A stretch of 64,000 nt of DNA from Pomacea canaliculata (Eukaryota; Mollusca; Gastropoda; Architaenioglossa; Ampullariidae): the NCBI RefSeq assembly GCF_003073045.1, contig NC_037602.1, positions 8,232,464-8,296,463 on the forward strand, in the 5' to 3' direction. Both the position numbers and the translations under genes were made by a program. Within the stretch, counting starts at the first letter, position 1. Each line of letters begins with the position of its first letter. The notes under the pieces are model-generated. The model had not been told where the DNA came from and did no database searches. It saw only the letters and a program-made list of their open reading frames with translations. Below are positions 8,592 through 41,242 of this stretch, piece after piece.

Positions 8592-11500
8592 TTATTTTTT
8601 GCCTAAAATGGCATGGATGATGGATGCTAAAGACTGGACATATGGATCATGGAATATGGACTCATGATCTCCATTGACATAGCAGATCTTCACATTTCCA
8701 GTACACAGTGTGCTAAGTCCATAATCTGCAGGTAGGAGCATGCAACGAAGAGGGCATTTCTTAATGCGGATAAGGTGTGCATCTCCTGTGTGCCAAAAAA
8801 AGGAAGAAAAAAGAATAATTGCTAATATACTGTCTTTTTGGTACAATGTTGATTTCAAAGAGGTTTTAGGAATTGACTGTTCATGGTCAAGTGTAAACAG
8901 AATGATCATAACCATTCATCCCGCTAAAGTCCATCCAATTGATAGAAAATATAAAAATTGAAAATTATATTACTGGGATGAAACATCTTGGATTGTGTAC
9001 AAGTATCAAGTTTTTGAATGAAACAGACATTTTAATTTCTGCCATCAACATACCAACAAATCTGGACTCTTGAGCTTCTACTGCAATGTACTTGCTGGCC
9101 ATAAAGGCAGCTGTGAGGAAGTCGGCAGCTTTCTGTTGGTGTCGAAAGTCAACCGTTTTTTCTACTTCTTCACAAATGGCATCATCATGTGTTTTACAAT
9201 AATTGCTTGACTTTTGCCTCAGGCTCTGGGAACTGGATAAGATGGAGCTGGCAAAAACAATAGGATATGGGGTTTAAATATTTGATGCACTATAACAATA
9301 ATGCATGTAAAGCCGATAATCTCTCCTACTCCACCTCCCACCCACACACCTACAGGCTCCTTTCCCACATCTATGCACACAAAACCTCATCCTTCACATG
9401 CAACAAATCTATTCAATAATCAAAATATTCTTAAACTCACGTGTCCTTGGCTGTCATTTTGGTGAGCTTCACAGCCAGAGTTATTCTTTCTTTCAATGAA
9501 GGAGATCTCTCTAGCTCTGCCTGCACCAGAGTCCTCTGTAGCACATGGCCATATAAGTCCATAAAGTGAAGCAGAAAATGTGACTCCATAATCCTACGTC
9601 CTTCCTGGCCAGTGTTAGCAGGCATTCGACTTCTGATATACTCTATCTGCCCCTTGACATAGTCTGGTGATCCGTCCAACATAAGCAGAAGTTCCACCTG
9701 CAAAAACACTGGGTGTCTTTATAATATGCTATCAAAAGGCCAGATGACAAATATGCTTATTTCCTTTCACAAATAATGTTAATCATGAAGACAGATTGTA
9801 TTCAGGTCTTTACAAAAAAAAAAAAGTAGATACAGAGGTATCTTTTTATCAATGAGTATTATTATATTTTACATTTGATCTAGAATCCAAACTGGCTTTA
9901 GCCAGTCAAATATCACAAGGTGCCAATGCATGCAGCCAGTTCTGTTAAGCCCCTGAATGTGATTTTTTTTTTTTTAAAAAGTCAAGATTGAAAGCAATGC
10001 CTCACTCTTTTCCCCTCTTGTTGAAACTGTCGTGCCATCTCAAAGACCAAGAGACCTCCATACGAATACCCAGCAAGCTGATAGGGACCAAATCTGTCAT
10101 TACACTTGATTGCAGCACAGTAATGTCTGCATCAGATGTGCAGAGGATCAGCAAATAAATGGTTTTGTTCAGTGGTCACAAAAAAATTCTTGCATCCTTT
10201 AAGTTAAACATTAAAGGGTATGGCATCCTGCATTTTTTTAATGTGAAACTAATATAAACAAGCCTGCATTTTATGTAGTATAAAATACAGTTTGGTTTAT
10301 AGCATTGTTTCAATACAGTAAGATTTGCTTCCCCTTGTTAAGTTCACTTAACATTTAAGATTCTGTCAGAGATCTGTCAAGCTTGAAATAGCTGGTATAT
10401 TTAATGAGAAATTTGTTTTGACTATTACATATCCGCAGATGACACAGAAATTTCAATAATATTAGGCATATGGTCAAAATGAGAAAGAGTGATACAAGAG
10501 CACTCATGGCTAAGAGCTATAAAAGTCAGGGGCTCAAAGGCAGTATTGAGATATGTTCCATGAATACCTCAAATAAAAATCTGCCACCTGCAAATGCAAA
10601 GCAGATCCCAATAATATTGTATGAGGTAGGTACCTGGCAACATCTTCAACAGAAGAGGTAGGAGTATCTGGAGTCCTTTGAATACCAATGCAGCAGACAT
10701 TCAACTTAGAAGCCAGCAATCTGAAAATCTCAATGGATCCTGGAAAAAAAAGATGAACAGTTATGAATTAATTATGAATTCTCCAGACTACTGACATGGA
10801 CACAGGAATGCATAGCTGACATAAAGTCCTGGATACTCCAAAACATGCTATGACTGAATGATGATAAAACTGAACTACTACAAAGAAATTTCTGCATCAT
10901 CCTTCTCTCCCTCAGTCTCTTTCTATAAACAACTAAACTATTCCTTTCTCCACCTCTGTCCACAGCTTGGGCGTCATTCTCGATCAGAGTTGACTTTTCA
11001 TCAACAAATTTCTCATGTCTGCAGAATTGCTTACCTTGAACTTTGTAGGATCAGTACCATTCATCATTATCTCACCCGATGCAACAAATTCTAATCTGTG
11101 GCTTTGTGCTGTCAAAGATGGATTATTGTAATTCTCTTTTAAAGGGACAGCTGAGGAAAATGATTATTTAACGTGAACACTTTGAAAAGAGAAAGACAAA
11201 CCCTATGATACACAGAAGATAAGAAATAATATAGGAAAAGAGTCGACATAGAAAATGGAGCAGCTGGGATTTAGAATTACACCGTCTATTGGCAAAGACG
11301 GCCATAAAACTGTAGGAAGAACGTATAAAAAATAAGATATGGGTAAAAATACTTAGTACGTAAGGGGCAATTAAATTTAGCCGATTTGTAAGTTTACACA
11401 TTTTGAACACACTCTCCAGACCAGTAGCTAGAGGAGAAAAAGTGACCAAATGTATGTACCAGTAATAGGATGAACAAGATATAATGGCCGCTTAAACCGC

Positions 11501-11626
11501 CATGCAGCAGATGGCTTATTTAGCTGCTGCAGTTCGGCTGGTGTAGATGATGGGAAATCTTCGATGAGGAGTGAGTGTTGAGCAGAATGTGTAAGGGATG
11601 TGAAGGTTGGTTGTAGAATTTGAAAC
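8592..11626 (-). other. Thioesterase (TE) block, catalytic triad present
   Basis: Exons 11460-11626 through 8592-8785 encode a FAS-type TE of about 300 residues. It opens with RPLYLVHPITG (FAS RPLFLVHPIEG). The nucleophile elbow GYSYGG is encoded at 10054-10071, the acid lies in LMLDGSPDYV (FAS LFDGSPTYV) and the His in NGDHESIF (FAS GDHRTLL). Ser, Asp and His are therefore all kept. In FAS this domain releases palmitate from the carrier protein; here there is no functional carrier, so the natural substrate is unknown (free acyl-CoA or a partner's thioester are options). Conservation here contrasts with loss in every upstream domain. Confidence 0.85.
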
Positions 11627-14600
11627 CTGCAGAAAAGCATACTTACACACTTAATAAACATAAAATTTGTATAGCACATACACTCTTAAGGAGCATGCTC
11701 ATAGCACTTAAGAACAAGACATGGGCAATATATGAGGGACAGAAGAACAAACAACTTATGAACTATGGTAAGATAAACAACAGTGCTGATGAATAAAAAC
11801 CAATACAGGAGACAGTTCTATTGTTTTGCTGCACAGTAACTAAGAATTCTGTGACCATTTTATTCTAGTGACAGGAATTGTTAGGAGACGGTCATCAGAT
11901 GAAGAGTGGAGTTGTCTAGAGGGGCATAAGGAAAGTTCAGTTTAATTGTAGCCATTAAGACAAAAACTAAGGGACTAGTATATTTTATAACAAAATGTAG
12001 ACTGCTAAAAACAAAACCCTCTAAGATGTAAACACAATTGTTCATAAATTCCACTTCAAAAAAAGTCCTTATCAAAATAAAGCCATGGTCAATTTTAACC
12101 CTGCTGAAGAAATAAGAAAATCAGAGAAATTATGCTCAACACAAGCCAGTTAATGCTTTGAGTGAGCAACCTGTAATACTTCCAAAAAACACCATGTAAT
12201 CCTATGAGGGAAAACATTGTAATCCTGATTCAATATGTTTGATCAATGATCAGACAAATGTAATGTTTTAGCTATCATAGTAATTTCCTGTTAACATGAG
12301 TAGAGGTTGGTAATAAAAAAATACCTCAACTAAACGACAAAAAGAACAAATAGTAGGGGTAGCTTTAAATAGTTCCTTACTGTTTCTCAGCCTGAAGATT
12401 TTCAATAGGTGTTGTAGCACATGCCGGCAGAACACCACTGCTGTTCTCATCTGTTGTCCTCTGTTCCACATCCTGAGAATCCAGCAGGCGAAGTACACTG
12501 TTCCCAGACAGCATGGCACCCTGGTTGAGTGTATTGCTAGTTAAGTTTAGCTCTTTGTCATATCTGGCATTTTCACAGCTTGCCCCTTTTTCAGGAGGAA
12601 TAACTTCCTGATTCTGATAAATCTCTTGAACGGTATCAGATTTTAAGGTCTGACTTTTTTCTGGGTTTTCCTCAACCTGAATTTCATTATTAGGAGTGAT
12701 TGAAATTAAGGCATTAGGTTCAAAATAGTTTTGATAGATGTCTGAAGCTTTGTTTTTGTTGATCTCAAAAACACATTCCTGACTCTCCCTTTCTCCAGCA
12801 GCTGTCTGAAGACTTTCAGAACCACCACAGAGTCGATGTAGGCAAGACTGAGCAGATTGAGAACAAGCAGGTATTTCATCTGAAAAACTGTGTGGATGTG
12901 CAAGCAGCTGTCTGTCAAAATCAACATGTTCCACACTGCTTGATGTCTGTTGCCTGAAACTTGTCTTGCCACCTGGAGACTGCGCTTGCTGAGTACTTAC
13001 ATCAACTGCTGAATCCTGATACTGCATAGAACTCACCTCTTCATAAGATGACAGCCGTTGCTTGAATGGTGGACAATCATAGGTGATTGGTCCCAAACCT
13101 TCATCTGGTAGACTATATACCAGAGGAGAGTCCTTTTTAGAGTTAGAAACAAGATTAAAGGCATATCTGTGCTGGTTGGATGAAGAGATCTCCTCTGTTA
13201 GATGAAATTCAATACCTGAATCTCCACTTTGTGAGCTCTCATCCTCAATCTCCTGTCCTTGAAGATTCCCCAAAGGCAAGGGAATATTTCTGGGCAAGTC
13301 TAACATAACACTGTCTTCATGGTTATAAGAATCAAACTGAAAAGCAAAATCAAGATCTACATTATCATCTGTGTCAGAGGCCAACTGTTCTTGATGCTCA
13401 GCCTGAGATTCCTCATGCTCTTCTCTGCTGAGGCCAGAGTTGAAATGAAAACTCACAGGTGGAGACACCAGTGCATCTTCTGACTTCAGCAACTCAGGTA
13501 GAATGGGATTTGGCAAGTTTCTGTACTCCTTACAATTTTGTGAGTTGGTATCATCAGACCAGGACTGCTGAAGAAATACACCAGTGATCTGGCACATTGG
13601 TTTAGGAGTTGATGAGTTGCCAAGGTTATGCTGTGATGGCTGCCTTGCTAGAGAAAGGATTTCAACATTGTCCAATGTTTTCACCGATTCATGATTTTCC
13701 AGAAGACCCGAGTCAACATCCAGGCTGCAAGATATCTTATCTATGCTCTTACTTTTATGAAATAAACCTTCAGTAGGTTGGTTACTCTTATGTTTAACTT
13801 CCACCTTTCTTCTACCAAAGCCTAATGCATCATCACAGAACTGATACATGCTGGCAAAATCCGGACTCCAGGGCGATTTGGCACTTAGGTAGCTGATAGC
13901 ACCAGGTGATTGTTGCTGGTGAGACAAGCTGGATGAGAGTGCAGAGTTTCTGCTTGTGAAGGGATCCAGAGAGAATGCCGGTTTCCTTGGAGAGATGGAG
14001 TCTGGGGAGTTGAATAGCAATACACTTTCAGACATAGATATTTCCTGTGAAAAATATGTTTCGCCATGTTTTTCATGCCTGACCTGTTCTCTCCAACTTG
14101 ATTCTGTGCAGTGCAAGGACTGCGTGCTCTCCAGCTGCAAGCCAAGGAAAAAAAGTAAGAGGAATAAAGTAACTAAAAGAAATCAACCATGAACTTAAGG
14201 GTCTGACTTCTTTGGGCTACATTTCAAGCTGGACTATAGATCTCTGGAAAGGTTAAAGACAGTAGAAGAGGATATATTTCTATCTCCTCCATGCCATGCT
14301 CTACACATGTGAACTAGCAGCAGTCCAGCAGTCAGTTACAAGACTGCATATTCACTGAATTACATATGCAGGAATATAAGCAAAGAAAAGTCATGGTCAT
14401 TTTAATAAAAGCATGAGGATCACTTATACATTCTAGAAAATATGAACATGGGCATAACTATCCTAAAATAAAATTCCTCCATCTCTTTGCTATGCCTAAA
14501 AGCACTAACTAAAGACAAACCTGGACAAAACTACTGAAATAAAGGGGAGAAAAATCACTTACCATGCCATGAAGCCTCCCTGTTTCCTGGGTAATACAGG

Positions 14601-17600
14601 ACCCAGATAGACAGGAAGTGAACTCGGACAACTCATCATGACCAGATAGCCAGGCTGTTTTTCCTTGACTTCTTGAGTCAGGACATTCTATTGGCTTCTC
14701 CTGGTTGGTATCTAAACATCCTGAAGTATATTTAGTTTCTTCAATAGGTTCATTTGAAGCTGCCATATGGCATGTTGCTTCTGTAGCCAACTGCATGGGA
14801 TAGGTCATACAGTGTTTTGATATCCTTTGACCAGGAAGTTCTTCAAACCTATTCTGAGAAGTTATAGCTGTATCCAGCCCTGAACTGGTTTCAAAGTAGT
14901 TTTTCAACAATGGAGACGAATTCTCTGGAGTAGAAACAGAATGAGTTTGACCTTGTGGATGTTGATACCCTTGAAGACATGTATGCTCACTTACTGAAAA
15001 ACTGGATGGGGCAGAATCGAAGCCACACAATGGAATTCTGGTGTCTTGGAAAGACTGAGCAAAGCTGCTTTTCTTCTGGGTAGCAGAGGTCTGCACTTTG
15101 CATTTTGCTCCACTGTTCCGAAGGTCCACAGCCCCAAAGTTAGCGCCAGTTGCTGAACTGCACAAGTCAGTGCCAGTTGTTGAACTGCACAAGTCAGCGC
15201 CAGTTGCTGAACTGTACAAATCAGCTGTTGAATCAAGTACATATCCATCACAGTCTACATGATCAGCTAAAGAGGAATCCGTTTCTGCAGAGATCTGGCT
15301 GGACACTTCAACGGTGGTTGTTGTCCCTGCTGTAAGCTTCTGGATCGGTCCCATTTCTGCTGACAAATCTGTTAAACTTGCTGAAGTCACAAGTGGCAGT
15401 AAACCTGATTCTTCCAAAGCGTCTTCCAGCAGCTCCAGCAACTGCTGCCCCAGTTTTTGTGATACTGGATCACGCCACTCACAGAAAGTGGTGGAAGCTT
15501 CTTGTTCCTGAGATGATGAAGGCTCATTTGCTAAACTCTCGTTGTCTGGGAATGCTCTCTTTTCTTGAGATGACAGACTGTCCAATATTTCTTTACCTTC
15601 AATATTCTGAATGGCATCGAATGGCAACTGTAAGTATGTTTCACTGGGAATCAGGAAATCCATGCCCTGCTTGTAAACAGTTTTTCCTTCTGGCATCCTG
15701 TCATTTCTAAGCCCGAGTCCTGAAGCTTCTCCTAGACCTGGTGGGCAAGCACTTGTACAAGTTCTGTAGATGTTTGAAGAATTTTCTGCTACAGGCCTAG
15801 GGATTGGTATACTCTGCTTATCATTTGTCAGAAAATTCACTTGATGCTGAACTGCACTTTGATCATACATAAGAGTAGTGCAGTCATAAGGCATCTTTAG
15901 ATTAATATTGTCTACTGCTGCTAAGCTACTGCTGCTTTGGCTGTTCAGTTGAAGTTCCCTGCCTTTGTCACTCATCTGGCTACAAGATTTAAAACAACCA
16001 TCTTTCTCGAATGATTTCTCGCTGAATGAAGAAGTGTCTTGGTGACCATCTTTATCTGAATAGCCATCCTCCTCCAAGGATGAAAAATAGCGTACCTCTT
16101 GCATTTCAGAATCTGATGGATATCTCTCATTGTAGGCATTACACCCAGAAAGGGAAACAATTTGTCTCTCAGTATACATGTCTTTTTTTTCAGTGCCAAA
16201 GGCTGGTAAACCTGTCTGGATGTAACATTTGGTGTTGGCATCAGAAGCCTTTTCAGGAAACTTATTTGAAACTTCTGGTGCACGCTGCATGTCAGCTGAA
16301 CCCTGAACAAAGCAATTACTCAAAGAGTCCATATACAGCATTTGATCAGTTACTTTCTCCATTCCATGGGGCAAGTCAGGTGCTGTAGCACCAATTGTGT
16401 GAAAACTGGAATCTACCTGCTCATTAGAAAGTCTTAATGGGAGGTAATTTGCCTCATGCCATCCAGTAGTTGCCAGACAAATGTTAGGTTCTGAAATATT
16501 GATGGAAGTTGGAAAACTCTCGAAGTCACACAGATTTTCTCTGTCACTGCCAGCAGATGAAAACTGATTTGATTGCATTTCCCATTCAGGATTATGTGTA
16601 TTCCCAATTCTGTTTGGATAAGAAAACTTGTTTGAAATACTGGAAATCCTTTTCAGACCAAAGTTCTCTGCATCACAGTCATGGAATTTTGCCAGTTCCA
16701 CGAGCTTGTTCTGGTTGTCAGCGACAGTGTAGTTATCCTGAAAGGCCACAAACAAAGAAAACTTGTACTTCAACTCCATAATAAAGAGCTGACATTTCAA
16801 CTGCAGGGCTTCTGTTTATGCAAAAAATTGCATACAGTACGCATTAAAAGTTCGGAGGACCCCTTCAATTTTCGTCAATGGGGTCCTCTTCAAATTTGGG
16901 CGAAGAACAGGGACCCCTTAAAAATCTGAAGAAGGGGTCCCTGGGACCCCAAAGAATTTAGCCTTAGCAGAAGCCCTGAACTGACATTTGAGATATGAAA
17001 CATAGCTCACCTTCTCCAGGTCTGCTGCTCTTTTAAAATTTAAATTAGCAGTAGAACTGTCAGTGGAAATCTCCACAGCATCATATGATTCCTCAGATTG
17101 CTTAACTTTCAGCACCAAGGACAAAGAGATGCACTCATTGAAATAAGCAGAATGCTGTGACTCGAAGCCACAGCCGAGACAGTCTGACATCTCCAGAGAC
17201 AGTATCTACACATATGCAAGTAAAGATTATTTTATAAGATTTTAACCTGAAATGATGCAGTTTATTACAACAGATACACTAACCCAAGCCAATATTCACT
17301 CTAGGAAGAAAAGCCTGTATAAGCTTAGGAAAATGAATTTCTTAAACAGAAGACGAGTAGCTGCCAATTTTGTGAAGTAAACATAAACTGGACAGGACCA
17401 GTAAGGCAAAGACAACAATGGAAGTAAAGTCTGCCACCACTAACCAGATAACCCCACAACTTGCCATTCTCTAAATATTTCATTCATTTAGCAGCTCACC
17501 AGTTCACATGTGGCACTGTCTAACGATGAAAGGCAGTCTAGATGAAGAAATGCTTCATCTTTCAACTGGGACAGCCTGGCAATCGAGCCCCTGATGGCTT

Positions 17601-20600
17601 GCTGTGGGTCCACACAAACCAGAGTCTTGTTTTTGTTGAATGTCATGGAGACATGAGCTGAATTACGTGGCTGTCCACACTGGATCAAGCGGCTGGATGG
17701 CGGCAGCTGATCCATTGCCAATGTAATGTCTGAAGCATATACAAATTATAAAATTACACTTCTCAGTACATCTAAGTTCCTGGATTCCATGAGACATTAT
17801 CAAACCTTTTAATCTCTAAAATGAACAAAATATGTTTTGATGTAAATCAGTGACTACTACATATTCTATGGCAGGTTTTCAATATTGCATCACCTTACCT
17901 CCAGTAATCCACTTCACACAGGTACACCCCCTAATGCTGCCATGTTGGGGAAGCTGCTGACTCCAAAACACCTGAGAAATAATTGCAACACCTGGACAAA
18001 TCTTGTTAAACACTTCAGGAACTGCGGAACCTTGTGTAAGTGCAAAGACCTGGCACCTGAAGTCATTTGCTGCCATCAGCAAGGTCAATGACAGTGAATC
18101 TGGAAAGAAAGGACAACAAAAATTTAAAAGCGCAAGCACTCCAAAGCAAAGTTCGAGTTATGCATCTCTAATTGAAACAAGAGGCAGGGACATGCCCCAT
18201 GCACCATGCTCACCAAATGGTGGATACACTAGAATGGTGTGTGTGGTTTCCAAGTCCACCATGTCCATGATATACATTGCTATCACCCACAGCAGAAGGA
18301 AGTGTTGATGTATGGGCTTCCACCAGCCTGGCACGGAGACTTGCAACATTGTGTGTGGATCTGAAAGCATTGAAAAATATTATCACTGCACAAAGTATTG
18401 GAACACGAATATAAATGCAGCTACCATGCATATCAACACTACAAAATATATTTGAACAATTATAAACATTGCTTAAAGTATCAGTAAGTAAATGGTCACT
18501 ATACCTGAAAGTGAATAGCTATAGTCAGCAACAACACTGTTAAAAGTAGGTTGCAAGCTAGTGCAGCAAGTCATCACAATGAATCCATAAAATCTTCAGT
18601 TAACCTTCTGAACTGTTGAAATGCTAGTAAAATGAGACATATGTGATTTTTCGTTTACAGAGCTGTTCCTAAAAGAAATGCACAAATATTTTGCTGTATA
18701 CTTACATTCTTCTGACCAAAATCCTGCAACCTGTTGCTGGGTTTCTGCAATGACACCATGGAACAACAGGACAGTAATATCATTGCACACCCAGACTGTC
18801 TCTGTGTGATTCACAATAATCCTCTCAGTCTTCTCCAGCATTTCAGATGCTCCAAAACCTTTCAATTCTTCCACTTCATCAGCAGAAGATGTTTTCACCT
18901 CATCCAGATTAGCATGCCCTGATGAACCAATTTGTTCAAGGCAAGGATGTACTTCTTGGCAAGAGATGCTGTCTATCTGTTTCTGAGTTTCAATTTGTTC
19001 TTGTGATTGTTTGTCTTGACAAAACGCAACTGTTGGATTTTCAGGTGCAGAGCATGACTTGATCTTTTCAACCTCAACCTTGCAAACTTCTAGCTGGAAG
19101 AAGTCTTTCTGCTGTGGGCTGCTTTGCACATCAAAGTTGAAAGGATGAGTGGATGCAGTGAATCTACTACCAGGATGCTGGAAAGCCATGGAATCTTTTG
19201 TCACTGTCACATGGACCAATCCTGTCTTTTCATCAAAGACGCAATGGCGACGACTTTGTTCTTCAACAGGTGATACTTCAAATATTGAGGCTTCAGTACA
19301 CTTCCTGTCCCTCCTCGTCAGACCAAGTGGCAGGAGAGGAAAATAAAAGATTACCCCACCAGCCCTGAGCAAACCTGAAAAACCAGCAGGACATTGTACA
19401 TTGAGCCCCAAGACAATTATCCACAATGTGAAAGAGAAAACAAAAGCACTAAATTGTTGAAAACGAAAGTTTATAAACAATTTTTGTGTGTGTGGATATA
19501 TATAGTGCATGTCAGAAAATTGCAATGACCATATACTTCAACAAGGATCTCTTAATGTATTGAGATGTCAGCACAGTTCTCCCTTGTCCTCAAACATGGA
19601 TTCAAAAATGCATTTCTAGATTGGATTCAAATGAACTTAAAACTTTCTTCAATGTGTGTGTCTATGAACATTCACAAGTCTTGTAAAGCAGACAATCTGA
19701 GGTACCTGTGCATGCTTCAAAGGACACAGTCACAGAATTCTGATTGTGGTCAAGCAGCTGCGCATGATACTGGGGCAAGAAAAGGGCTTCCTCTGGCAAG
19801 GTGGTGACTAGTCTCTGACCCTTGTCAATTTGGTGATCTCCATTTTCTTTCCACGTATGAAGAATCTGCTGGAGATACAGCTGCCAGTCGTCCTCCCATT
19901 CGACTGTCCAGACAGACTGCTCATGGCCTGTAGTGATGTCTTGATTTACATCACTGCTCAAAAAATAAAAATTACATGACACTTTCTTTGTTGAAAATGC
20001 ATTTTATTCTTTATTTAATAAACCTCCATGCTGATAAAAAAAAAAATACTTGCAAACGTTCATAATCAGCTTTGGTATCTGAAACTAGATAAGATGTTTC
20101 ATGATTCATAATAATGCAATTGAAATAGCATGAGTGCATTGTCCTATTTCATAAATGAAACTTGCTTTTATGTTTGTGTGTTAACTTCTTTGCCATCTTT
20201 GTTAACTGTACCATCAACTTCTATACCTACCACCATGCATAGTGAAAATCTCCAATGGGCTGGTCTGGTGGTTCTCGGAGTTCCTCAAAACGGCCACCAA
20301 GTATTATACCATCTGTATAAGTAAAAATGAAAGCTAACCCCGCTTTTCCAACACTTTGGTAACTAGTATTCACCTGCAAGCTACCGATTCCAAAAACTAA
20401 TAAAATTGTAACAAGCTAAAAACGACTTAAACAGAATCTAATAAGGGCCTAAATAATGGTCTAAATTACAAATCCCTAAATCCCTCATAATATTCAGTTG
20501 ACACACTACTTATATAGTTTATCACTCAAATGATTACTTAGAAGACTTCTTTGATGTCCAAATACTGTATTAACAAGTAATGGGAACACTAGATAAAGAC

Positions 20601-23600: not shown

Positions 23601-26600
23601 TTGACAATTACCATTTCTTTCTGATGGTTTTTTTTTTTTTCGTTTTTACAGTGGTGGTTGAGGGTAGATGAATAGGCAAAAATTAATCTTGTTCAAGCTG
23701 CATACCTTACAAAGGAACAAGACCACCTTTATGATACTACTATGCTCAAGAATACCTGCTGTTTGGGAACATGGATGAATCAAGTGAAGAACTTGGCTAA
23801 TTTTTACTGGGTACACAGATGCAAATTATCTTTCGTCAAGAGGTGGACTTTGCTTTAACAAGGCTAATAAAATACGCACATAGCATTTCTTCCTGCATTA
23901 TCACTTTCTACATACAAATTAGGACTTAGATGTTTTGGCTAAATTAAAAAAATATTTCTAGTGACAATGAAATCCAACATTTTGAAGAATGTGGCAGCAA
24001 AACAGGTTCTTGTGGTGTTCAAACTTTTGCCACTTCAGTATCAGAAAACTGTAAATATTAGATAATGGACTTCCGTTCAAACCCACAGCAGTTTGTACCC
24101 AGTTATAAGGATCTAATTAGTAGCCAACTTACCAAGGATGTGAACCTTGCCCAGAACATTGAGTACATCCAGCAGTGAAGGGCTCCAATGAATGATGCGA
24201 GTTGTATCCAGCTGGATGAAACTCTTCTGAGCCTCTGAAAATATGGCACCTTCACATCCTGGTATATGAGCCATCACAACAAAGTCAGACTCTCTAAGCA
24301 ATTGCTTCATCAGCACTGGCTGGTCGAGAGGATGAAGGATAGAGTTGATAATGTACTCTGCATCACAGAGAAGATCGGCCACTGAGTTTGGATGGCTTCT
24401 GCTGAGAGGCAGAAGAGTCAAGTCTGACCTGAAGAAACAAACGTTTTTCAATCAAATATGGTGGTCAGTACAAAAGCTGCATTCCTTAACAACTATACCT
24501 AACCAAATAAGAGATTTAAAAGAGAAAAAAATCTTCATAAGAGCATTAAAATTAATAACCATTGATAAGAAGCACTCCAACCCCACCACCCTTTGAAAAT
24601 TCCCACAACTCCAAGCTCTCCCATTTAATCAGTAACTATTTAAGAACTAGCTAACATAAATTATGAAGCGTGCAAAGTAGATAAATTTAACTGTAAACTT
24701 CCAATTAATGTGGCACACAAGTACTAATAACTACAAATAATCATCAACCACCCTCAACCATCTGAATTTTCATTTTTAAAAAATGACGCTATCTTGAATT
24801 GCCCTTGTGGATAAATAAAGTTGTGATGCTAAAAGTTAACCAGTGATACTTTCAACAGACACTACACCTTCATACATTTATCTCCTTTATCTCCAGCCTG
24901 AGAATCAGTCACAGCTTTTGGTAAAAGCTTACCACTGCTTTGGGTGAGGTATGATGTGTCTCACTCTCTGAACTGCTAGGTCTTTAATCTTCAGCAACAG
25001 GTGAGGGTTAAAGAATGGAGAGTTGATGACTGGCTTGAACTGTCCTCCTATGTGAGTAAAGTAATTTCACAATAAGGCATCAAGTGTGATTAAGCTATAA
25101 ATGCATCAATGTATGGAAAAAATTGGTAAGCACTTAGTTTGCAATGTAAGTCTGTATTGAGAATGATGAAGTAGCATGTCACTTTATATGACTATACTAT
25201 TTTTTGGATACTACACAATAGTGGACTTTTAAAAGTGCTGTTCATATACAGTATTTACCTTTTAATGAAACTTGCTTTTCCACATTATCCACAAGGTGTG
25301 GAACGTGCCTTGGCACACCAATCACTGCCAGGAAATCTGTCAAAATGGCGAGGATGTAGATGTTTGGACCTAAGCGGTAAACCTCATCAACCTTTAAATG
25401 GACCAGAGCCACCAGGTATCTGCAACCTGAAATGGATATATTTGAAAGAAACCTTGCAACAGCTTTTTAACAGCTATTTAAAGAGCAGAGATGGGGCTTG
25501 AATGTTAAGTGAAATTGTAGGACATGGATTTCACATGAGACTTACATGGAAACCATGACAATATTATAGTAGTATGGAACACGGCACTCATACACATGCA
25601 CAGAGGGAAAGGAAACAGGTACATACATGGCGATGGGGGGGTAGCTACTGGCCGGGTGACAACCCAGTGACCAAAAGAGAGCGAGAGGGGGTCAACTAGT
25701 GACAGGTGGTGGTGCAGAATACAAGTCATTACTGCAACTGCCAAGAAAGATGTCATACTTCTCTCTAGATCATCTATCCAGCAGCCTGCAATTGAGCTCA
25801 GGGTGTATGCCACTTGTATACATTGTTTCTGCGTCAAACAACCATCATAGTAAGCTGCAGCCAAAACCCCCAGACCCCCTTCAGCCACTGCTGCCCATCT
25901 ACCACAGGCCTGTCTCATAATCTCTGCTAGTCCTGTGAACACAATATTTTTAAGAGTTTATGATGGGCATCAAGAAAGTTTGTGCCATTATTAATACAAA
26001 TTTTTTAAAAATGTGTAGCATCTGAAAGGTCGCCTATTCAACATTTCTCGACATGAGCTGCCCTCTTAATGCATGTTTTAAGGGGCTAAATTGTTTTCTC
26101 AAATACAGACACCTAAGCCATCAGTACAGAAAATTTCTTTACTCACAGAATCAATCAGCTCTTCTAAGGACTTGGTTTTTCAATCCAAAGATTCTTTAAT
26201 TTTGCCAAATAACCAAAAGTTACAAGCAGCTAAGTCAGGTGAACAGAGAAGACTGAAGAATTCAAATAAATGCCCCTTGCATATTCAAGAAAAATTATAG
26301 GATGCAATGCTGTTTATGTCAGCCAAAAGTGGACAAATATATCTCATAGATGCAAATGGTAGACTAAGTACTCATTTCATTCTACCAGGTTACTGATATT
26401 TTTGCTAGTCTTTAAAGCTAACATACAGAAATTTTCAAATGTGGGGCTTAATGTTTGCTTCCCATTGACCTTGTGCTGTTACATGATGGCTGCTACTTTA
26501 TCAAGCTCTCTCACCGATCTGAACAGCAGTGCCAGTGATGATATGGGTGTGAGTCATACTTCCTCCATTGTTGGTTTCTTTGTCCAGCTTCTTGTGGGGC

Positions 26601-29600
26601 ATAGCCATGCACTCCAGAATTGTGTGGTATGCTCCCATACTCAGTTCTTCAAAGATCTGGTCAACATGGGTATGATGCACAAAAAAAATTCTAATGCATA
26701 ATGGCCATCTTCTAAACCATTAAAAGGAAATTTGAACCTGATGGTCAACATCCAATCCCAGGATTTTTGTTAAAAAAAAAAAAAAACCGTAACAAGGAAA
26801 TGGGAGTGTTGGAGTTAAACAAAAGTTTCTAACACGCTCTATTAATAGCTTTATACAAATGGTCTTCACTTGCAAACACACTGGCAAATCAGCAAAATAC
26901 ACTAAAGCTTAACTAGCAACTCCTGCTTACTAAATAGTGACACACACCTTACAACAGTTGCCTCAGCGACACACACTGGTAATGGTGATACATGCCCCAT
27001 ATAGCTTCCATAACTGCTCTCATTCTCTTATCTCTCCACCACTTCTTGCTCTGACTGCGGCTACTTTTTCATCACTTACTATTCAAGGCTTATATACAAG
27101 TTCAAAGGTATCTAGTCAGAGCCAGAATTTACTCATCACGCAAACATTTACTCACACCAAACATTCCAGTTGACAAGGCTTATGGTATTCATTCATACTT
27201 GTACCTACTAGAAAAGTCTAGATGGACTGGGATAAAGCTATCCACTGACACCAGCCATGTCATAACGAGATCAAACACCCATTATAGCAGTGCTGGCTCC
27301 ACCCCACAAATGGCTTCATCCTTTAATTCATAACAAGCACACAAGCTAACCTTATCTGAAACTTTCATGGATTCTTCAAATGCTGGAATCTGCCAAAGCT
27401 CAGGATCAACAGACATTTCAACTGAAGAAAAATCACCCCAGAAGAAGACCAATGTCAGTGAAGGCTGAAAAACTTGACAAGGGAGCAATTTCTCACTTGC
27501 CAGTATCTCTGAAACAAAGCAGCAAGAAACCTTTAACCCTTTTGTTTACCTAAAGCATATACACAAATGTAGATGCAGTCCAAAATACTTTGTTGGGGAA
27601 GGAATTGTTTGACTAAAATGCAACTTGCCCATTTCTGGAGATATAATCATGTAGCCTCTTGTAGGCTGTAGTGTGTCTGAGGTAAGTACAGATTTTTCCA
27701 TCAGAAGCAGCATTTCAGGGTATAATCTGCTGGCATTCTCCACAGCTTTGCATATTCGATCCAGGCCCACACCACATCTTGCATATAATGGCAGAAGAAC
27801 AGTAGCAGGTGCTGCAGACCAAGAGATGCAAGATGACAGGCTGACTGAATATAATGTTCTAGAGAAAAAGGACAACTTGACAAAAAAAAAAAAAAAAAAA
27901 AAATAATAATCAAGTTCTAGAAATTCAAATTTTGTTTATGAGAGTGGTTTATTCTGACATTCGACCATTTTATGATTCCAAGGTTCAAAATGTCATGTCT
28001 CAAAAATGTACTTTTGATATTCATGTTTAAAACTCATGCTATGACATTATATGGTACATCATGGATGGAACTGAAAGGGAGATAAATAAAACAGGTAACC
28101 ATACGGGTAGTTTGTGGCCATTTGCATCTGAAGGGGACCAGCACCACACATCCACTTGTTCCGCCAAGTCCCCTGCTTATAACCACTGTGGCACCATCTG
28201 AAATTGAAACAAATTCACTGTCACTGAAAAATGTTCCTACAAGATGTCTAGCTTTTATGAGTCCCAGACAATGAAGCATGCATCAATAACACTACTCTGC
28301 ATGTTTTATCCTCATCCCAAGTTTTTTCCCCCTAATACTCGCTTGTTTTGGGTATTCTTACCCCTGAGGTTACTTAATATTGGTGATACAACTGACCAGT
28401 CTTAGATATATCATGAAAAATAACACCTGATCAGTTGCTATGTCCAATTTGAAACTTTGACACTTTCTGAAACAAAGACATCAGAAATCCAGACTACTTA
28501 ATGCATTGCTACTACTTCTATTGATGCAACATAATCTGTTGATCAACACGCTTAATGGTGGAAAAAGCATGTAAGTCTGAAAGTCTCATCACTAGGCTAG
28601 CTGACTCTTTTCTGGTAGTAATTTTTTCTGTTTTTGATCATGTTCAGTTTTATCACCTTTTCTGAGCACTATATATGGTCTACTAAATGTAACATCATGC
28701 TTTTATCAATATTTCAGAGACCAATTTTTGTGAGCACCTTTTATAGATGTATGACCATCTTTCACAGCTTCTGCAGGGGCATCACTTGCATGATAAGTCG
28801 TATCCAGCAGGTCAGTAATTCTGCTGGTAAAGCAGTGAGGGACCCAATCACAATGCATGGCAAACACACTGACAATGATTGAGACTAGCCCTGCAAACCA
28901 CAATAAATTAAACTTAACTGAAACAAAAAAGTAAGGTAAAGTAAAGAAAAAAATAAAATCTACTTTTAACATTTAATATCTTGGCCAAATTTAAAAAAAA
29001 TCATACCAATGATTAGGTATTTTACAGAAATAAGCAAAAGTGCAAGTTTAGAATACTTTCATCCAATTCATTTCGTGTTTTTCTAAGATACAGAAGGTAC
29101 ATTCATAGTCAAGTTACAAATGGCAAGATATTACATGAACTAGCTGGGGCATTAAAATGTGTACTTGCTTCCATCTACCTCATCTATGTATACATATATC
29201 TGAATGCATTTCATGTTTTCTACCTGCTGCACTTTGGCAGTGCCCAATGGCATTAGTGCTTGCAGCACAGATGACCTCTTTATCGATTTTCTTGCCTTTT
29301 AGTAGGGTCTTTACAAGTCTTTTCATCTGTTCTTCATCAACTGCCTGAAGATTTTCAAAGTTTATATTTAATATACATACAGCAGTTAACTATTTGTAGG
29401 TAAAAATAAAATTATTTGTTGTATGTTGCACTAAAAAAGGCCAATACCTATCATCAACAACTTCCCCCCAAAAACCCTACACTTGCTCAAAGGATACCCA
29501 TCACATACAACCCCTCTCACCTCATTCCCCTTGCCACACACAGTCCATCCTCGTGCTATCTCCCCTAAATAATTACACTAATGATCTTTAAATGTAGACC

Positions 29601-32600
29601 TGAACTCCAGGGCCACTTGATTCAATGTATAGAATGTCTTCAAGATCAACTCCTGAATTCCTGCATGTTTCCTTGATAAGCTTTACCATGGAGTTGCAAT
29701 CAATATGAGATGTGCCTGCACACATGTTCCATACCATAGGATTCTTAAACAATTGTTTAAAACAGTAAGATTTTAATTATACAGGCTAAGCCAAATCTGG
29801 TAAAATGTCAAACTTTAAGGATGGATAAGGGAAGTCAAACTTTTAAATTAATTTTTTAGATTAAGGACTATTAAATTTAATTTCATCTTTATTGTTATTT
29901 CACTTATTTCATCACTCTGCAGCATATTTTCTGAAAATTTAAAATGAGAACAAACCGCTTTCCCTGGAACCATCTGAGCTGATCCCAACTCCAAGAAGCA
30001 AAGAGTAGATTCTGTTGCAGCGCAGCATCTCCCTGACACATAACATGCATTTCTTAGCAACACAAAGAAATGTTAGGGAAATAATTCAATTAGACAAATG
30101 TAGCTGAAAATGTTAATCTTGGTCTTCTGTGCTGTAACACTTCTTGAAATGAAGTTTACCATTAGTGTAAACAAATTTAAGCTGATCCTTATGGCAATGA
30201 GCCCTTTGTAAATGTTTGTATCACCTGCAAAAAATTGTCACACTTTGTCATAATGTGATAATGTGATAGCACTAACATTTTCCTGCTAGCAAAAACCCTT
30301 CACTCACTCATCCACATCATTTATAAAGCACTATAATAGTTTGATATTTTCAATGCTTAGAAAAAAATTCAGGAAAAGTTTCAAGGTGGTCAGATCAAAG
30401 AAAATGTTCAAGTAAATATGAGCCTTCAGCTTAATGATAGTGCTTTTGTAATCAATAGTAACTGGTGTACTTTGAAATTGCATTCATAAATAAATTTCCT
30501 GTATTTTATTAAAGTCAAAAGTACCGTGTCAAGATGATAGCTGCAACACCATCTGACTGTGAACCACAAGAAAGTCCATCTGATCCCAAGCTCAAGTATT
30601 CCAGTCCCTGGGCCACCAGTGGATTAACAACAAGGTTCCCACCTGTACCCTCAACACCACTTGTTTAATTAATCTGCACAGGTTGTGAATTATATGAAAA
30701 TTTTCATAAAATACCAGTTTACGCTGACAACACCTGTGAAATTGAAGAACACATTCATAAATTTTTTGGGGATATCAGCAAGTTTCTGATATACATTCTC
30801 AAAATCTAATGATGAATATCACCTCTACATACAACACCTCTACAAGTGGATAGCGCTTTAAAATAGAGGAACATAATTGTCTTTCACTAACGGACAAATT
30901 TGCGGTCTCTCACTTTCGCTCAATCCAAGGTCTACTAGATACTATATATTGGCCAGTGTGCAGTGGTCTTTTAAGTAGAAAACTGGCTGACAAGCAGATT
31001 TATCACAGAAAAACAAAATACATAGTAGAAAATTATATTCAGTGAGGTCTTGAATCTAGGAACAAATGCACTTTATTTTGGACAAACAGTATGGAAATGC
31101 TTTTCAACTTCACATTTATTCACCTGCTACAATGGCATAATGAACTGCCCCTCTCTGCAAGTCACGTACTGCGATGTCAACAGCAACCAATGAGGAGTTG
31201 GTGTCTGCATCGACACCAACTGATGGGCCGTATGTTCCCAGTAGATGACTAATATGACTTGGCACATTGGAACTTCTAGCTTCTGTTAAACAGTTCAGTG
31301 CCATTGATTTGTAACTTTTTCTGAGGATAGTGCAAGCTATTTCTAGTTCAAAGCACATTTCAATTTTGCACAATTTGTGGGTCAAACCCTAGACAATTGT
31401 AAAAGACAAGGTTTAATAATAGAATTTTTACAGTGCAAATTCCTGTGTGGCTAGGAGGTCAATGTGCTGCACCTGAAAGACTACAAATAAACTGACACTT
31501 TAAGCAAGCAGATGACAAATTAAATATGAACTAAAGTGCATAAACATGTAGGCTTATAATCCTTAGTATACAAGTATGACTTCGCATATATTACATACAA
31601 AGCAAAACTATTTTTAAAACCAATCCTGTAACACAGAAGTTACTGACCCCAAAAGGTTTTGAACTGTTTGGATGTGAGGACAGAATCTAAATATGATGAC
31701 TGTGCAATGTAGAGTCCAGCTGGCTCAGAAGAACTTTGGAAAGTGGACAGAGGCAAGCCAGAGTCTAGGACAGCTTCATAAATGACCTCCAGAAGATGTC
31801 TAAGAATTGGGTTGCCAGAAAAAGTCTGTTAACAGAAGATCGAAATGTTGATGAGTCTGTGCCATTTCATTAATTTTATGCTGGACTAATGGGCTGATAA
31901 TCACTTACCTAGCAGATGCTTGAAAATTAATTTCTCAATAAGTTAAGGGAGAGAACGGGGTGAACGAGGGAGATGGGAGTAAAAACCAACAAAAACTGAG
32001 TTGAGAGAGCTGGAGACGAAACTTCAACCAGCTGTTTCCTACCACATAAAAGGGTACACATTGCATAAAATAAAAATTACATAAATGCTCATGAAGTGGC
32101 TTCCTTCCCCTCCAAGCCATCCACTTTTAGAATATGGTCAATAAATTCCTCAACTTTATCTGTTCTGAAGACTTCCAGCAATTTTAACTTTAGGTCTGAA
32201 AAATTCCTTTGATTTTATGGATAAGAAACACTGTATTTCTACTTTCATCCATTTTCTGGCTGGAAATCCTCACCTTTGTGTCAGAAAAATACCAAAAGTC
32301 AGCATCAAATCCATCCTCATTTTTAATCCGACCAACACTTTTAGGTAAGTAGGGCAAGCAAGTGTTGGGCCACCGTGCAGGGCTCTGTCCTGTAATCCCC
32401 GACTCTCCATAAACCTTCAGCTGCTCCCACAGTTCCTGAAATTTTAAAGGATGTAGCAATATGAAACCAAAAAAAAAAAAAAGCATACCATAAACAATGA
32501 CTGTTTCTTGTAATGTTAAAAATAATGTAAGGTTGTTACAAAATGGAAGTTTTTAAAAACTGACCATTGCAGCAGCCGAATTTTGGGGTTACTCAAAGAA

Positions 32601-32888
32601 CAGTCAGTGTCAGGCTGCCTGGGAGTGTACACATTGCAAAAGTGTTGACACACTGTGGTTAAACTATGGCTTTACCATTTACTTTATAAAGAGCTGTACA
32701 AGAGAACTTTTAATATTATTTATCAACCTGCTTAAGTCATAAAGCAGACATAACATATTTCTAACCTCCACATTGTTGGCATTTGGAAATCTGCCTGCTA
32801 TTCCCACAAGATACACTCCCCTGACAGTTCTTATTGATGCCCGAATTTCCTTTTGTCCAGGCTGCATGATACTTGCGGTTGATCCCAT
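8592..32888 (-). CDS. Fatty-acid-synthase-like protein with inactivated synthase domains and an intact thioesterase (about 3,250 aa)
   Basis: Start codon 32886-32888, in an exon whose 5' border (32901) looks like an acceptor, so a non-coding exon probably lies upstream. Coding exons: 32766-32888, 32274-32435, 31648-31825, 31124-31282, 30525-30642, 29956-30032, 29600-29715, 29224-29344, 28756-28890, 28105-28197, 27614-27811, 27351-27508, 26515-26656, 25723-25932, 25259-25381, 24933-25047, 24133-24428, 23121-23261, 22512-22627, 20989-21187, 20231-20312, 19706-19953, 18717-19374, 18505-18557, 18214-18360, 17899-18099, 17500-17729, 17011-17205, 14563-16737, 12381-14134, 11460-11626, 10634-10739, 10006-10126, 9441-9697, 9054-9247, 8592-8785. 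Phases agree and the total is divisible by three. Least certain borders: 31282, 27614, 25723 and 25381. By resemblance to animal FAS the order is KS, MAT, DH, short linker, ER, a long Ser/Gln-rich region, TE. KS, MAT, DH and ER lack key residues; KR and a normal ACP are not seen. Open frames across 36 exons argue against a pseudogene. It may act as a cytosolic hydrolase/scaffold (inference). Confidence 0.85.
10780..11130 (+). mobile_element. LINE reverse-transcriptase fragment (non-LTR)
   Basis: Reads on the plus strand inside an intron of the FAS-like gene. Pieces such as LNDDKTELL, LGVILD, TFHQQISHVCRIAYLELCRI match the downstream RT and thumb region of CR1/jockey-type LINEs. Several frame breaks are present, so it is a dead 5'-truncated remnant. 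A relative lies at 34795-35115. Confidence 0.7.
15143..15235 (-). repeat. 27-bp in-frame tandem repeat inside the disordered region
   Basis: Three 27-bp units (15143-15169, 15170-15196, 15197-15223) plus a partial fourth encode 9-residue repeats of the form DLCSSATGA, DLCSSTTGT, with Tyr for Cys in one. Because the unit is a multiple of three, copy-number change keeps the frame. It is consistent with a rapidly evolving unstructured segment. Confidence 0.8.
16804..16978. mobile_element. 175-bp MITE with terminal inverted repeats
   Basis: CAGGGCTTCTG at 16804-16814 is matched by its inverse CAGAAGCCCTG at 16968-16978. Inside are GGACCCCTT and GGGGTCC motifs able to pair. It makes up most of a 273-bp intron of the FAS-like gene. 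AACTG directly flanks both sides and may be a 5-bp target duplication, but the surrounding ACATTT sequence is also similar, so the superfamily is unclear. Confidence 0.65.
17500..19300 (-). other. Short linker and enoyl reductase (ER)-like block
   Basis: Residues about 1125-1535. The region that in animal FAS holds the inactive methyltransferase plus linker (well over 400 aa) is cut to under 200 residues here. ER landmarks follow: HGVIAETQQQVAGF (FAS FSGRDASGKRVMGL), a segment ending LQVSVP (EEAASVP), TILVYPPFDSLSLTLL and CQVFALTQGSA (CRVFTTVGSA). The NADPH-binding loop HSGSGGVGQAA is replaced by YPPFDSLSLTL, with no glycine left, so reductase activity is not expected. Exon 18505-18557 is only 53 bp and rests on phase and alignment. 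Confidence 0.72.
21397..21900 (-). mobile_element. LINE reverse-transcriptase fragment with YADD box
   Basis: On the minus strand the translation contains FIDFSKAFH (RT motif A), GVKHGCMLSPELFSIFLSEL (motif B region), MYADDIAIVADSP (catalytic motif) and WELKVNMDKTK. This order is typical of non-LTR retrotransposon RT. The 5' part carries stops and the rest is missing. It sits in the intron between exons 22512-22627 and 20989-21187 of the FAS-like gene, in the gene's orientation. Confidence 0.85.
22709..22917 (-). mobile_element. tRNA-derived SINE, copy 2 (most complete)
   Basis: Read on the minus strand it starts GGGCGCCCAGTAGGGTAGTG, has the A-box-like GTGGTTACAACACTTGC and the B-box-like GGTTCAGATC, then a central CCGGATACATTGGTTTC block and a tail with GGTGAAAGCACTTTC. 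The head is tRNA-like but includes SINE body, so it is not a working tRNA gene. It lies in an intron of the FAS-like gene. Confidence 0.75.
24133..27811 (-). other. Linker and malonyl/acetyltransferase (MAT)-like block
   Basis: Residues about 430-840. The KS-MAT linker ends in TRGYMIISPEM (FAS: FRGYAVLGGE). The MAT core follows: LVFFWGDFSS, then TAVQIGLAEIMRQACG, EGGLGVLAAAYYDGCLTQ, GGQFKPVINSPFF and DLTLLPLSRSHPNS. The nucleophile elbow GHSLGEV is EGGLGVL here, so Ser is Gly, and the catalytic His of GGMAFHSYF is missing in GGQFKPVINSPFF. Acyl transfer is not expected. The exon 26515-26656 sits beside a mariner fragment but is host coding sequence. Where exon 25723-25932 ends is uncertain; donors at 25733 or 25759 are alternatives. 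Confidence 0.75.
25965..26290 (-). mobile_element. Decayed mariner-like DNA transposon fragment
   Basis: On the minus strand, SPDLAACNFWLFGKIKESL matches the SPDLAPCDFFLF block around the last catalytic Asp of mariner-family transposases, followed by KSLEELIDSVSKEI. At least two in-frame stops and loss of the N-terminal part show it is dead. The sequence TGGCACAAACTTTCTTGATG near 25980 may be part of a terminal repeat. It lies in the intron between the 26515-26656 and 25723-25932 exons. Confidence 0.65.
28105..32888 (-). other. Ketoacyl synthase (KS)-like block of the FAS-like gene
   Basis: Residues about 25-425. Landmarks match FAS KS: VGIAGRFPNANN near the start, FDADFW, LLEVIYEAVLDSG, YGPSVGVDADTNSSL (31188-31211 covers DADTNSSL), GSDGLSCGSQSDGVAAI, YIESSGPG, STNAIGHCQSAAG and a GLGGTSGCVVLV end. 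In active enzymes the nucleophile lies in DTACSSSL; here the aligned Cys is Thr. The first catalytic His (AHGTGT) is replaced by Ser in SSGPG; the second His (GHPEPASG) is retained in GHCQSAAG; and the Lys of KSN is Thr. Condensing activity is not expected. Confidence 0.8.
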
Positions 32889-36110: not shown

Positions 36111-36583
36111 ACTTGTATTTATATTACACGCAGGCATACACTCAACAAACACACACACATATCCTGAAACAGTTGAAACGGTTGAGCGCTTGCTCACTAT
36201 TCGCCGCGAAAGATTTTTATAAAAACGACGTAACGTCGATTGTTCTCGTTGATTCTCTAGTTGTTTGGGATTTTTTGTTGTTGTTGAGAAAACAAAGCAT
36301 GCCAGCTATTGTAACATTTACAGGGGTGGCTGAACAAATATGTCACACTCACCCAGTCACCTATCCGTCCTCACCATACACACACACTTGCGGACGCCTA
36401 CACGCACAACGAACTTGGGTGCACGCCGGTTCGATACTCGTTTGGCGCAGCGAACATTTCCTCAGCCAAACTGTCAGGAATGGATATCTGTCTCCATAGA
36501 GGGTTAAGCTGAACTTTTACAAGCGCGTGAAATTATAACCTTAATTATATTTTATTCGTTCTCTGACACAGGCAATACCAACA

Positions 36584-38379: not shown

Positions 38380-38453
<74 letters not shown>

Positions 38454-40680: not shown

Positions 40681-41242
40681 TGGTATAGTTTTGTTTGAAG
40701 TTGTTGGAATGATACAGAGAGAAATAACTTTATTTCTACTCCGAACACAAAACACACACACATATATTCACGCGCACCTAGTCCTAGGCTCAAAAGAAAG
40801 AAAACGTGCGAACGTTCACTGAAACTTACAGTTGGCCATTCACTCAGATATCAATAACATAAAAAAATGTTGAAACAAATGCTGTTCTCGTTTTCAGTAA
40901 ATAAAAAAAAAAATTGAACAGAAATGACACAAGAACCATATATGGAAATGTCAAATAAGTATTAGTTCTTTTTTGAGGATTCGATTATTTGTGATGATGT
41001 ACTTCATTCTTAATGGGATTTTAGTTGTGATCGCGCATTTTAGTTGCTTTTGACAAGCCCAAATTTCTATTCTGTTTGTCACGGAATAGATAATAAAAAT
41101 CTGTTTAAGTAAATCGAACAAAAAAATGAAATAAAAATAAAAATTAACAAACGATTGTAATTTATGGAAAAAGACGGACACTCCTACGTTAATAACATAA
41201 TTGTCGTTCTGTGAAGGACACACAAGGCTTACAACTGACCCA

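What the first reader, a model, noticed from the sequence alone, without database searches (positions are those of the whole stretch)
8592..32888. A fatty-acid-synthase-like megaprotein in which the synthase domains are inactivated but the thioesterase is kept
Thirty-six in-phase exons give a protein of about 3,250 aa with FAS domain order. The KS Cys and one KS His, the MAT Ser and His, the DH His and Asp, and the ER NADPH loop are replaced; KR and a usable ACP are missing; the TE triad remains. Loss of several independent activities together with frame integrity suggests re-use of the FAS body as a scaffold carrying a hydrolase, rather than decay. I know of animal FAS-like polyketide synthases in molluscs, but those keep catalytic residues; I do not know a described family of this form.
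Basis: partly seen in the sequence, partly recalled or inferred. Interest (0 to 1): 0.92.

Follow-up and report, generated by a model that had tools for sequence, protein, structure and literature searches.

The report
Fatty-acid synthase turned into thioesterase
A gene that groups with those of snails and limpets and descends from fatty acid synthase appears to have lost its fat-building activities while keeping a well-preserved enzyme that cuts fatty chains loose, which would show how a large multi-enzyme can be recycled for another job.

Summary
The minus strand, 32888-8592, carries a 35-exon frame of 3,279 aa in the order KS-MAT-DH-ER-(long Ser/acid-rich linker)-TE. KS Cys and His1, MAT Ser/Arg/His, DH His/Asp and the ER NADPH loop are replaced; no KR or ACP is detected; the TE triad is intact. 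Four gastropod relatives (two Haliotis, Gigantopelta, Patella) share the truncated layout, dead MAT and ER, loss of the DH His, a TE triad, and a 74-78 aa TE segment that is 41-42 aa in three FASs. The window keeps 52 of 104 KS columns invariant in six other proteins but 37 of 41 TE columns; left-out controls keep 89-96% and 87-95%. A described but uncharacterised molluscan group, 'mo-clade 4' AFPKs (PMC10764717), fits; membership could not be tested directly. Best reading: a fatty-acid-synthase pseudoenzyme whose remaining activity is a thioesterase acting on substrates carried by other molecules. Expression, dN/dS, substrate and species remain untested.

The parts
28105..32888 (-). KS (ketosynthase) block, exons 1-10, aa 1-461; catalytic Cys replaced by Thr at 31202-31200, first catalytic His by Ser at 29617-29615, second His kept at 29242-29240
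   Evidence: exon model; Pfam ketoacyl-synt 3.8e-28 and C-terminal 3e-15; alignment with relatives and FAS; coordinates
24133..27811 (-). KS-MAT linker and dead MAT (acyltransferase), exons 11-17; nucleophile Ser->Gly at 25876-25874, His->Asn at 25009-25007, Arg->Leu
   Evidence: window MAT against the four relatives' profile 99.3%, against FAS alone 71.4%; residues; coordinates
23121..23261 (-). post-MAT SPLxxWDH segment, exon 18
   Evidence: tblastn of P0001 at 23217-23107, 56% identity, E 1.4e-8
19706..22627 (-). dead DH (dehydratase) block, exons 19-22; His->Leu at 22592-22590, Asp->Gln at 19871-19869
   Evidence: window against relatives' profile 99.7%, against FAS alone 91.6%
18706..19374 (-). 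exon 23, 669 nt: end of the DH block and an acidic stretch lying where FAS has psi-ME/psi-KR
   Evidence: model; no FAS match for this segment in relatives or window; disorder-like composition aa 1201-1350
17500..18360 (-). dead ER (enoylreductase) block, exons 24-26; NADPH glycine loop replaced (PPFDS, around 18223)
   Evidence: window ER against relatives' profile 97.0%; the window alone has no match to FAS here
12381..17205 (-). long Ser/acid-rich, probably disordered linker, exons 27-29 (195, 2175 and 1754 nt), about aa 1560-2934, where KR and ACP would be
   Evidence: open frame and composition; disorder-like index; no KR or ACP match
8592..11626 (-). thioesterase (TE), exons 30-35; Ser 10065-10063, Asp 9676-9674, His 8666-8664 intact; enlarged 77-aa segment between Asp and His
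   Evidence: Pfam Thioesterase 3.8e-22; solved FAS TE 1xkt E 1e-30
8588..8593 (-). possible AATAAA polyadenylation signal overlapping the stop codon
   Evidence: sequence and position; consensus recalled, not a test of function

Best explanation
The gene encodes an animal fatty-acid-synthase-like protein that no longer synthesises fatty acids. Shown: it keeps the KS-MAT-DH-ER frame, lacks residues needed for KS, MAT, DH and ER chemistry, has no detectable psi-ME/psi-KR, KR or ACP, and keeps a thioesterase with its Ser-Asp-His triad and an enlarged segment between Asp and His shared with four relatives. Shown: those relatives have the same build but a KS with intact residues. Inferred by parsimony: loss went in steps, first MAT, DH, ER, KR and ACP, later the KS in the window lineage. 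Inferred: the protein now works as a thioesterase. Since its own chain has no acyl carrier, it must hydrolyse thioesters brought by other molecules (acyl-CoA, or acyl-ACP of the animal's own FAS or an AFPK). The dead body probably keeps the dimer form and docking surfaces, and the roughly 1,370-aa linker tethers the TE and may be a site of regulation.
For: Splice model. Residue table. Pfam, solved-structure and profile matches for KS, MAT, DH, ER and TE, and none for KR or ACP. Selective retention: the window keeps 52 of 104 KS-invariant columns against left-out controls of 89-96%, but 37 of 41 TE-invariant columns against controls of 87-95%, Fisher p 3.5e-6 for KS against TE. Branch lengths: KS 2.68 for the window against 0.43 and 0.37 for Gigantopelta and Patella; TE 1.24 against 0.93 and 0.64. 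FAS-invariant columns kept by the four relatives: KS 56-62%, TE 66-74%, MAT 15-29%, DH 24-31%, ER 19-22%; by the window: 33, 65, 20, 31 and 14%. TE segment 74-78 aa in the five members and 41-42 aa in three FASs.
Against: No transcript, no dN/dS and no second sequence from the window lineage, so selection on the window protein is inferred from frame and residues. That the TE is active, and on what, is not shown. In columns invariant among three relatives alone, the window TE keeps 57 of 88 (65%), slightly below its controls (67-76%); the KS keeps 87 of 184 (47%; controls 78-81%). Exon curation was partly guided by my recall of the mammalian FAS sequence, and weaker junctions lie in the KS (exons 3-7), which could add to its apparent divergence. 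KS loss is uneven: exons 1-4 and 6 keep 36 of 49 invariant columns, exons 5 and 7-10 keep 16 of 55. The window alone does not match FAS in the ER, and only at 71% in the MAT; those assignments rest on the relatives. The linker has no detected counterpart in the relatives. Conservation of the dead domains between the two Haliotis (81-88%) is little above that of the inter-domain linker (78%), so it is weak evidence for a structural role.
Confidence: 0.66

Rival explanations
1. Ancestral KS-TE enzyme with its carrier in trans: the clade's job is a condensation or decarboxylation by the KS and release by the TE, on an acyl carrier or CoA supplied by others. The window gene has lost the KS half and does only the release. 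(Not exclusive of the best explanation; it concerns the relatives.)
For: KS Cys-His-His intact in 4 of 4 relatives, and the KS is their most conserved domain (56-59% between Haliotis, Gigantopelta and Patella).
Against: No MAT nucleophile and no ACP in any of the four; no known partner. For the window itself the KS is dead, so this explains the family rather than the window protein.
Confidence: 0.45
2. A gene in decay: a former member of this family that is losing function domain by domain and will become a pseudogene.
For: The window KS is strongly accelerated; MAT and ER are hardly recognisable in the window alone.
Against: Two giant exons open at log10 P of about -19.5 and -17.1; a stop-free, phase-matching chain of 35 exons exists, though found by selecting open exons; TE columns kept about as in FASs.
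Confidence: 0.08
3. Two neighbouring genes read as one: a dead FAS body, and a separate TE (or linker plus TE) gene.
For: The roughly 1,370-aa linker between ER and TE has no counterpart in the relatives; no transcript is at hand.
Against: Four relatives are held as single proteins with KS to TE; phases match through exons 26 to 30.
Confidence: 0.08
4. Heterodimer partner: the protein pairs through its KS with the canonical FAS or an AFPK, tunes that enzyme and brings an extra TE that changes chain length. (A special form of the best explanation.)
For: Animal FAS dimerises through its KS (recalled); part of the window KS keeps more invariant columns than the rest (36 of 49 against 16 of 55); no own ACP.
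Against: No interface residues were mapped; no interaction data.
Confidence: 0.2

Closest known systems
Molluscan mo-clade 4 AFPKs (animal FAS-like PKSs; PMC10764717, Nat Commun 2024;15:236; passages and the Discussion section read, not the whole text)
   Same: FAS-related molluscan proteins in which InterPro saw only KS-AT-TE; present in all mollusc classes surveyed there; a TE, unlike mo-clades 1-3; AFPK genes are intron-dense with larger exons in the psi-MT region, as exon 23 here.
   Different: The passages I read give no catalytic-residue audit and call the biochemistry unknown. The window member has a dead KS and a linker of about 1,370 aa. No mo-clade 4 sequence was available here, so identity with the clade is inferred from layout and range.
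FAS-like proteins of Haliotis cracherodii, H. rubra, Gigantopelta aegis and Patella vulgata (database entries P0001, P0121, P0122, P0123)
   Same: Same layout, MAT Ser->Gly, DH without its His, ER loop lost, no KR or ACP, TE triad, 74-78 aa TE segment.
   Different: KS Cys-His-His intact in 4 of 4; 1,844-1,976 aa; Patella keeps the DH Asp; the two Haliotis proteins carry a PLAT domain, not found in the window.
Animal cytosolic fatty acid synthase (Babylonia P0124, Aplysia P0126, Cynoglossus P0006)
   Same: Domain order KS-MAT-DH-ER-TE; TE triad; 31% TE identity between window and Aplysia FAS.
   Different: FAS keeps the KS, MAT, DH, ER, KR and ACP residues and has a 41-42 aa TE segment.
OLAH, mammalian thioesterase II (recalled, not searched)
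   Same: A FAS-type thioesterase acting in trans on FAS-bound chains.
   Different: A small free-standing protein, not fused to a FAS body.
Sacoglossan EcPKS1/EcPKS2, mo-clade 1 AFPKs (PMC7280274; passages read)
   Same: FAS-like molluscan proteins with altered domains; both lack a functional ER.
   Different: No TE; EcPKS1 is reported to make polyketides; the reverse of the window protein.

Membership tests
mo-clade 4 AFPK | Only KS, AT and TE recognisable by domain tools | tested here: inconclusive
   Pfam only, not InterPro. Window: KS and TE above cut-off, AT at E 0.097, below cut-off. Relatives scanned (3 of 4): KS and TE in 3 of 3; AT at E below 0.01 in 2 of 3 but above its cut-off in 1 of 3; P0001 also has PLAT.
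mo-clade 4 AFPK | KS outside canonical FAS but nearer FAS than PKS | tested here: met
   KS tree of 14 rows: window plus four relatives 100/98, next to five FASs (94/93), apart from one eukaryote and three bacterial PKS. The window branch is very long (2.68), so its place is less sure than the number suggests.
mo-clade 4 AFPK | Groups with the named mo-clade 4 sequences | not testable with these tools
gastropod KS-MAT-DH-ER-TE family (P0001, P0121, P0122, P0123) | MAT Ser->Gly, DH His and ER loop lost, no KR, no ACP, TE triad kept | tested here: met
   5 of 5 including the window for the residues; KR and ACP not detected.
gastropod KS-MAT-DH-ER-TE family (P0001, P0121, P0122, P0123) | TE segment between Asp and His of 74-78 aa | tested here: met
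   Window 77; relatives 77, 76, 78, 74; FASs 42, 41, 42.
gastropod KS-MAT-DH-ER-TE family (P0001, P0121, P0122, P0123) | KS Cys-His-His intact | tested here: not met
   Intact in 4 of 4 relatives, Thr-Ser-His in the window. Hence filed as a variant.
animal FAS | Active KS, MAT, DH, ER, KR and ACP | tested here: not met
   residues and domains
animal FAS | C-terminal TE with Ser-Asp-His | tested here: met
polyketide synthase (AFPK sense) | Makes a polyketide | not testable with these tools
   Absence of the KS Cys, MAT Ser and ACP makes it implausible for the window protein.

The most novel reading that the evidence does not exclude
Gastropods carry a family in which a fatty acid synthase was turned, step by step, into a non-synthetic protein: first MAT, DH, ER, KR and ACP were lost while KS and TE stayed; in the window lineage the KS went too, leaving a thioesterase with an enlarged substrate segment, carried on a dead FAS body and a long disordered linker, that edits acyl chains in trans, possibly on the animal's own FAS.
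Probability: 0.45. Interest if true: 0.78.

Novelty: new variant of a known kind. Interest (0 to 1): 0.64.

Why it matters
AFPKs are discussed in print as KS-containing enzymes of lipid and polyketide synthesis (PMC10764717). If this reading is right, one branch holds a member that does not synthesise at all: a pseudo-synthase with a working hydrolase. It gives a graded series (canonical FAS; Haliotis and Patella with KS and TE; window with TE only) for asking which parts of a megasynthase can be lost and in which order. It also turns 'unknown biochemistry' into a simple test: does the TE cut acyl-CoA or FAS-bound chains, and does the body bind FAS?

Tried and rejected
The first automatic gene model added many tiny false exons; it was replaced by a curated chain. 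Scripts failed and were corrected; one search set two exon ends one base off and gave a broken frame; the join had a stop at exon 18/19, gone with the stronger donor at 23121. A hidden ACP in exon 28 (about aa 2040-2090) was suspected by eye; no Pfam or profile support, so not claimed. A PLAT domain as in Haliotis: no room between exons 11 and 12 and no Pfam match. A second FAS-like gene in the window: no tblastn hit outside this gene at E 1e-3 with five queries. The protein search with the full window model was swamped by bacterial synthases (498 hits, 120 listed, only the 7,977 candidates sharing most words scored). The search with the window TE gave 13 hits, one of them a family member, P0001. 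The other three relatives came from the search with the C-terminal part of P0001 (25 hits). All three searches are word-limited, so absence of further relatives means little. dN/dS could not be done: I have no coding DNA of relatives. Literature for a described pseudo-FAS: (open-licence PMC only) gave no description of these residue losses; two papers listed (PMC12833800, PMC12267109) and one (PMC7190597) were seen as listings only.

Rows dropped before counts: one search used 3 relatives and 3 FASs (H. rubra, P0125, P0127, P0081 and bacteria left out); one search used 3 FASs, 4 relatives and the window. Which FAS residues are catalytic, the consensus splice and poly(A) signals and the disorder scale are recalled, not from a call.
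Full report
What is there. On the minus strand from 32888 to 8592 the window holds a gene of 35 coding exons. Exon candidates were scored by splice-site and codon statistics and chained by phase, with hand curation. The result is 9,840 nt and 3,279 aa without an internal stop. Because open, phase-matching exons were selected, the open frame as a whole is partly by construction. The exon 3/4 and 11/12 junctions are ambiguous, but each has two solutions that keep the frame. The two largest exons, 2175 and 1754 nt, carry no stop; at the stop frequency of the other two frames log10 P would be about -19.5 and -17.1. An AG acceptor lies just upstream of the ATG, so a non-coding 5' exon is likely.

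Independent support for the exons. Proteins fetched later (P0001, P0122, P0123, P0124, P0126) hit the raw window by tblastn on the minus strand at 10 of the 35 exons (3, 4, 14, 15, 18, 30, 31, 32, 33, 35) with 28-64% identity. No hit lies outside this gene at E 1e-3.

Domains. Pfam gives ketoacyl synthase (3.8e-28 and 3e-15) and thioesterase (3.8e-22); acyltransferase is only hinted at (0.097, below cut-off). The TE matches solved FAS thioesterases (1xkt, 1e-30). Profile comparison places the window MAT, DH, ER and TE on those of the relatives (99.3, 99.7, 97.0 and 100% probability), and those of the relatives on FAS (99.1, 98.5, 98.4 and 100%). The window alone against FAS gives TE 99.9, DH 91.6, MAT 71.4 and no ER match, so the MAT and ER assignments lean on the relatives. 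The stretch between ER and TE, and that between DH and ER, match nothing in FAS: psi-ME/psi-KR, KR and ACP are not detected.

Active sites. Aligned with the FASs of Babylonia, Aplysia and Cynoglossus, the window has KS Cys->Thr, His1->Ser, His2 kept; MAT Ser->Gly, Arg->Leu, His->Asn; DH His->Leu, Asp->Gln; the ER glycine loop replaced; nothing matching the KR Tyr or ACP Ser; TE Ser, Asp and His kept.

Relatives. A search with the C-terminal part of P0001 found 25 proteins. Four of them, P0001 included, share this layout: Haliotis cracherodii, H. rubra, Gigantopelta aegis and Patella vulgata, 1,844-1,976 aa (taxonomy of the last two). In 4 of 4 the MAT Ser is Gly, MAT Arg and His are lost, DH His is lost (the DH Asp is present in Patella only), the ER loop is lost, KR and ACP are not detected, and the TE triad is intact. 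In 4 of 4 the KS Cys-His-His is intact.

The TE of all five members has a segment of 74-78 aa between conserved marks where three FASs have 41-42 aa. This looks like a shared derived mark and may change the substrate pocket (inference).

Constraint. In columns invariant among three relatives and three FASs the window keeps 52 of 104 in the KS (each other row, left out in turn, keeps 89-96%) and 37 of 41 in the TE (87-95%) (Fisher p 3.5e-6). With the three relatives alone the figures are 87 of 184 in KS (controls 78-81%) and 57 of 88 in TE (controls 67-76%), so by that measure the TE is slightly below its controls too. In the KS tree (14 rows) the five form a clade at 100/98, with a window branch of 2.68 against 0.43 and 0.37 for Gigantopelta and Patella. 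In the TE tree (11 rows) they group at 87/99, with 1.24 against 0.93 and 0.64. The place of the window inside the clade is unresolved in both. In the four relatives, columns invariant in three FASs are kept at 56-62% in KS and 66-74% in TE but at 15-31% in MAT, DH and ER; in the window at 33% in KS, 65% in TE and 14-31% in the others.

H. cracherodii and H. rubra are 91% identical in KS, 81% in MAT, 87% in DH, 88% in ER, 85% in TE and 78% in the linker before the TE. The dead domains are thus held at about the level of the TE, but the linker is not far below, so this is only weak support for a structural use of the body.

How it most likely works. From the residues, no synthesis is expected and no carrier is present. 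Inferred: the TE is the remaining activity and must act in trans, on acyl-CoA or on chains carried by another synthase; the body keeps a FAS-like dimer and docking; the Ser/acid-rich linker (disorder-like composition) tethers and perhaps regulates the TE. A KS-TE function with a trans carrier is likely for the Haliotis-type relatives.

What is known. PMC10764717 describes molluscan AFPKs. [quoted passage not shown] The family found here fits that description and range, but I could not compare sequences. Searches of the open-licence library found no account of a catalytic audit or of a KS-dead member.

Verdict. The family is probably already on record as a sequence clade. New here, as far as my searches show, are the residue-by-residue account, the stepwise loss, the selective hold on the TE in a KS-dead member, and the enlarged TE segment. 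Species, expression, dN/dS and substrate are open.

Noticed in passing
window 21397-21774, minus strand: Reverse-transcriptase fragment (Pfam RVT_1, 2.7e-14) inside the intron between exons 19 and 20: a retroelement remnant.
   Followed up: partly
window 36545-36823 and 41201-41569, plus strand: Two related open frames (WAKxAxxxxxxGxTLHxxGWxxMxWMxYxTSGSVL), perhaps tandem copies of a small membrane protein gene; no Pfam match above cut-off.
   Followed up: partly
window 243-623, minus strand: An open frame that by eye resembles a myotubularin-related protein; no Pfam match.
   Followed up: partly
P0001 residues 483-591 (Haliotis cracherodii) and P0121 (H. rubra): A PLAT/LH2 domain (4.8e-21 in P0001; listed for P0121) between KS and MAT, not found in Gigantopelta, Patella or the window.
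   Followed up: partly
P0001, P0121, P0122, P0123, upstream of the TE: A conserved VGxP[KR][TS]PxTP motif some 35-40 aa before the TE, looking like a proline-directed phosphorylation site; not noticed in the window protein.
   Followed up: no
window 32888-28105 (KS exons): Loss in the window KS is uneven: exons 1-4 and 6 keep 36 of 49 invariant columns, exons 5 and 7-10 keep 16 of 55; the better kept part may hold the dimer contacts (not tested).
   Followed up: partly
window 38221-38481: A CA/TG dinucleotide repeat (seen as VCVC/HTHT frames).
   Followed up: no
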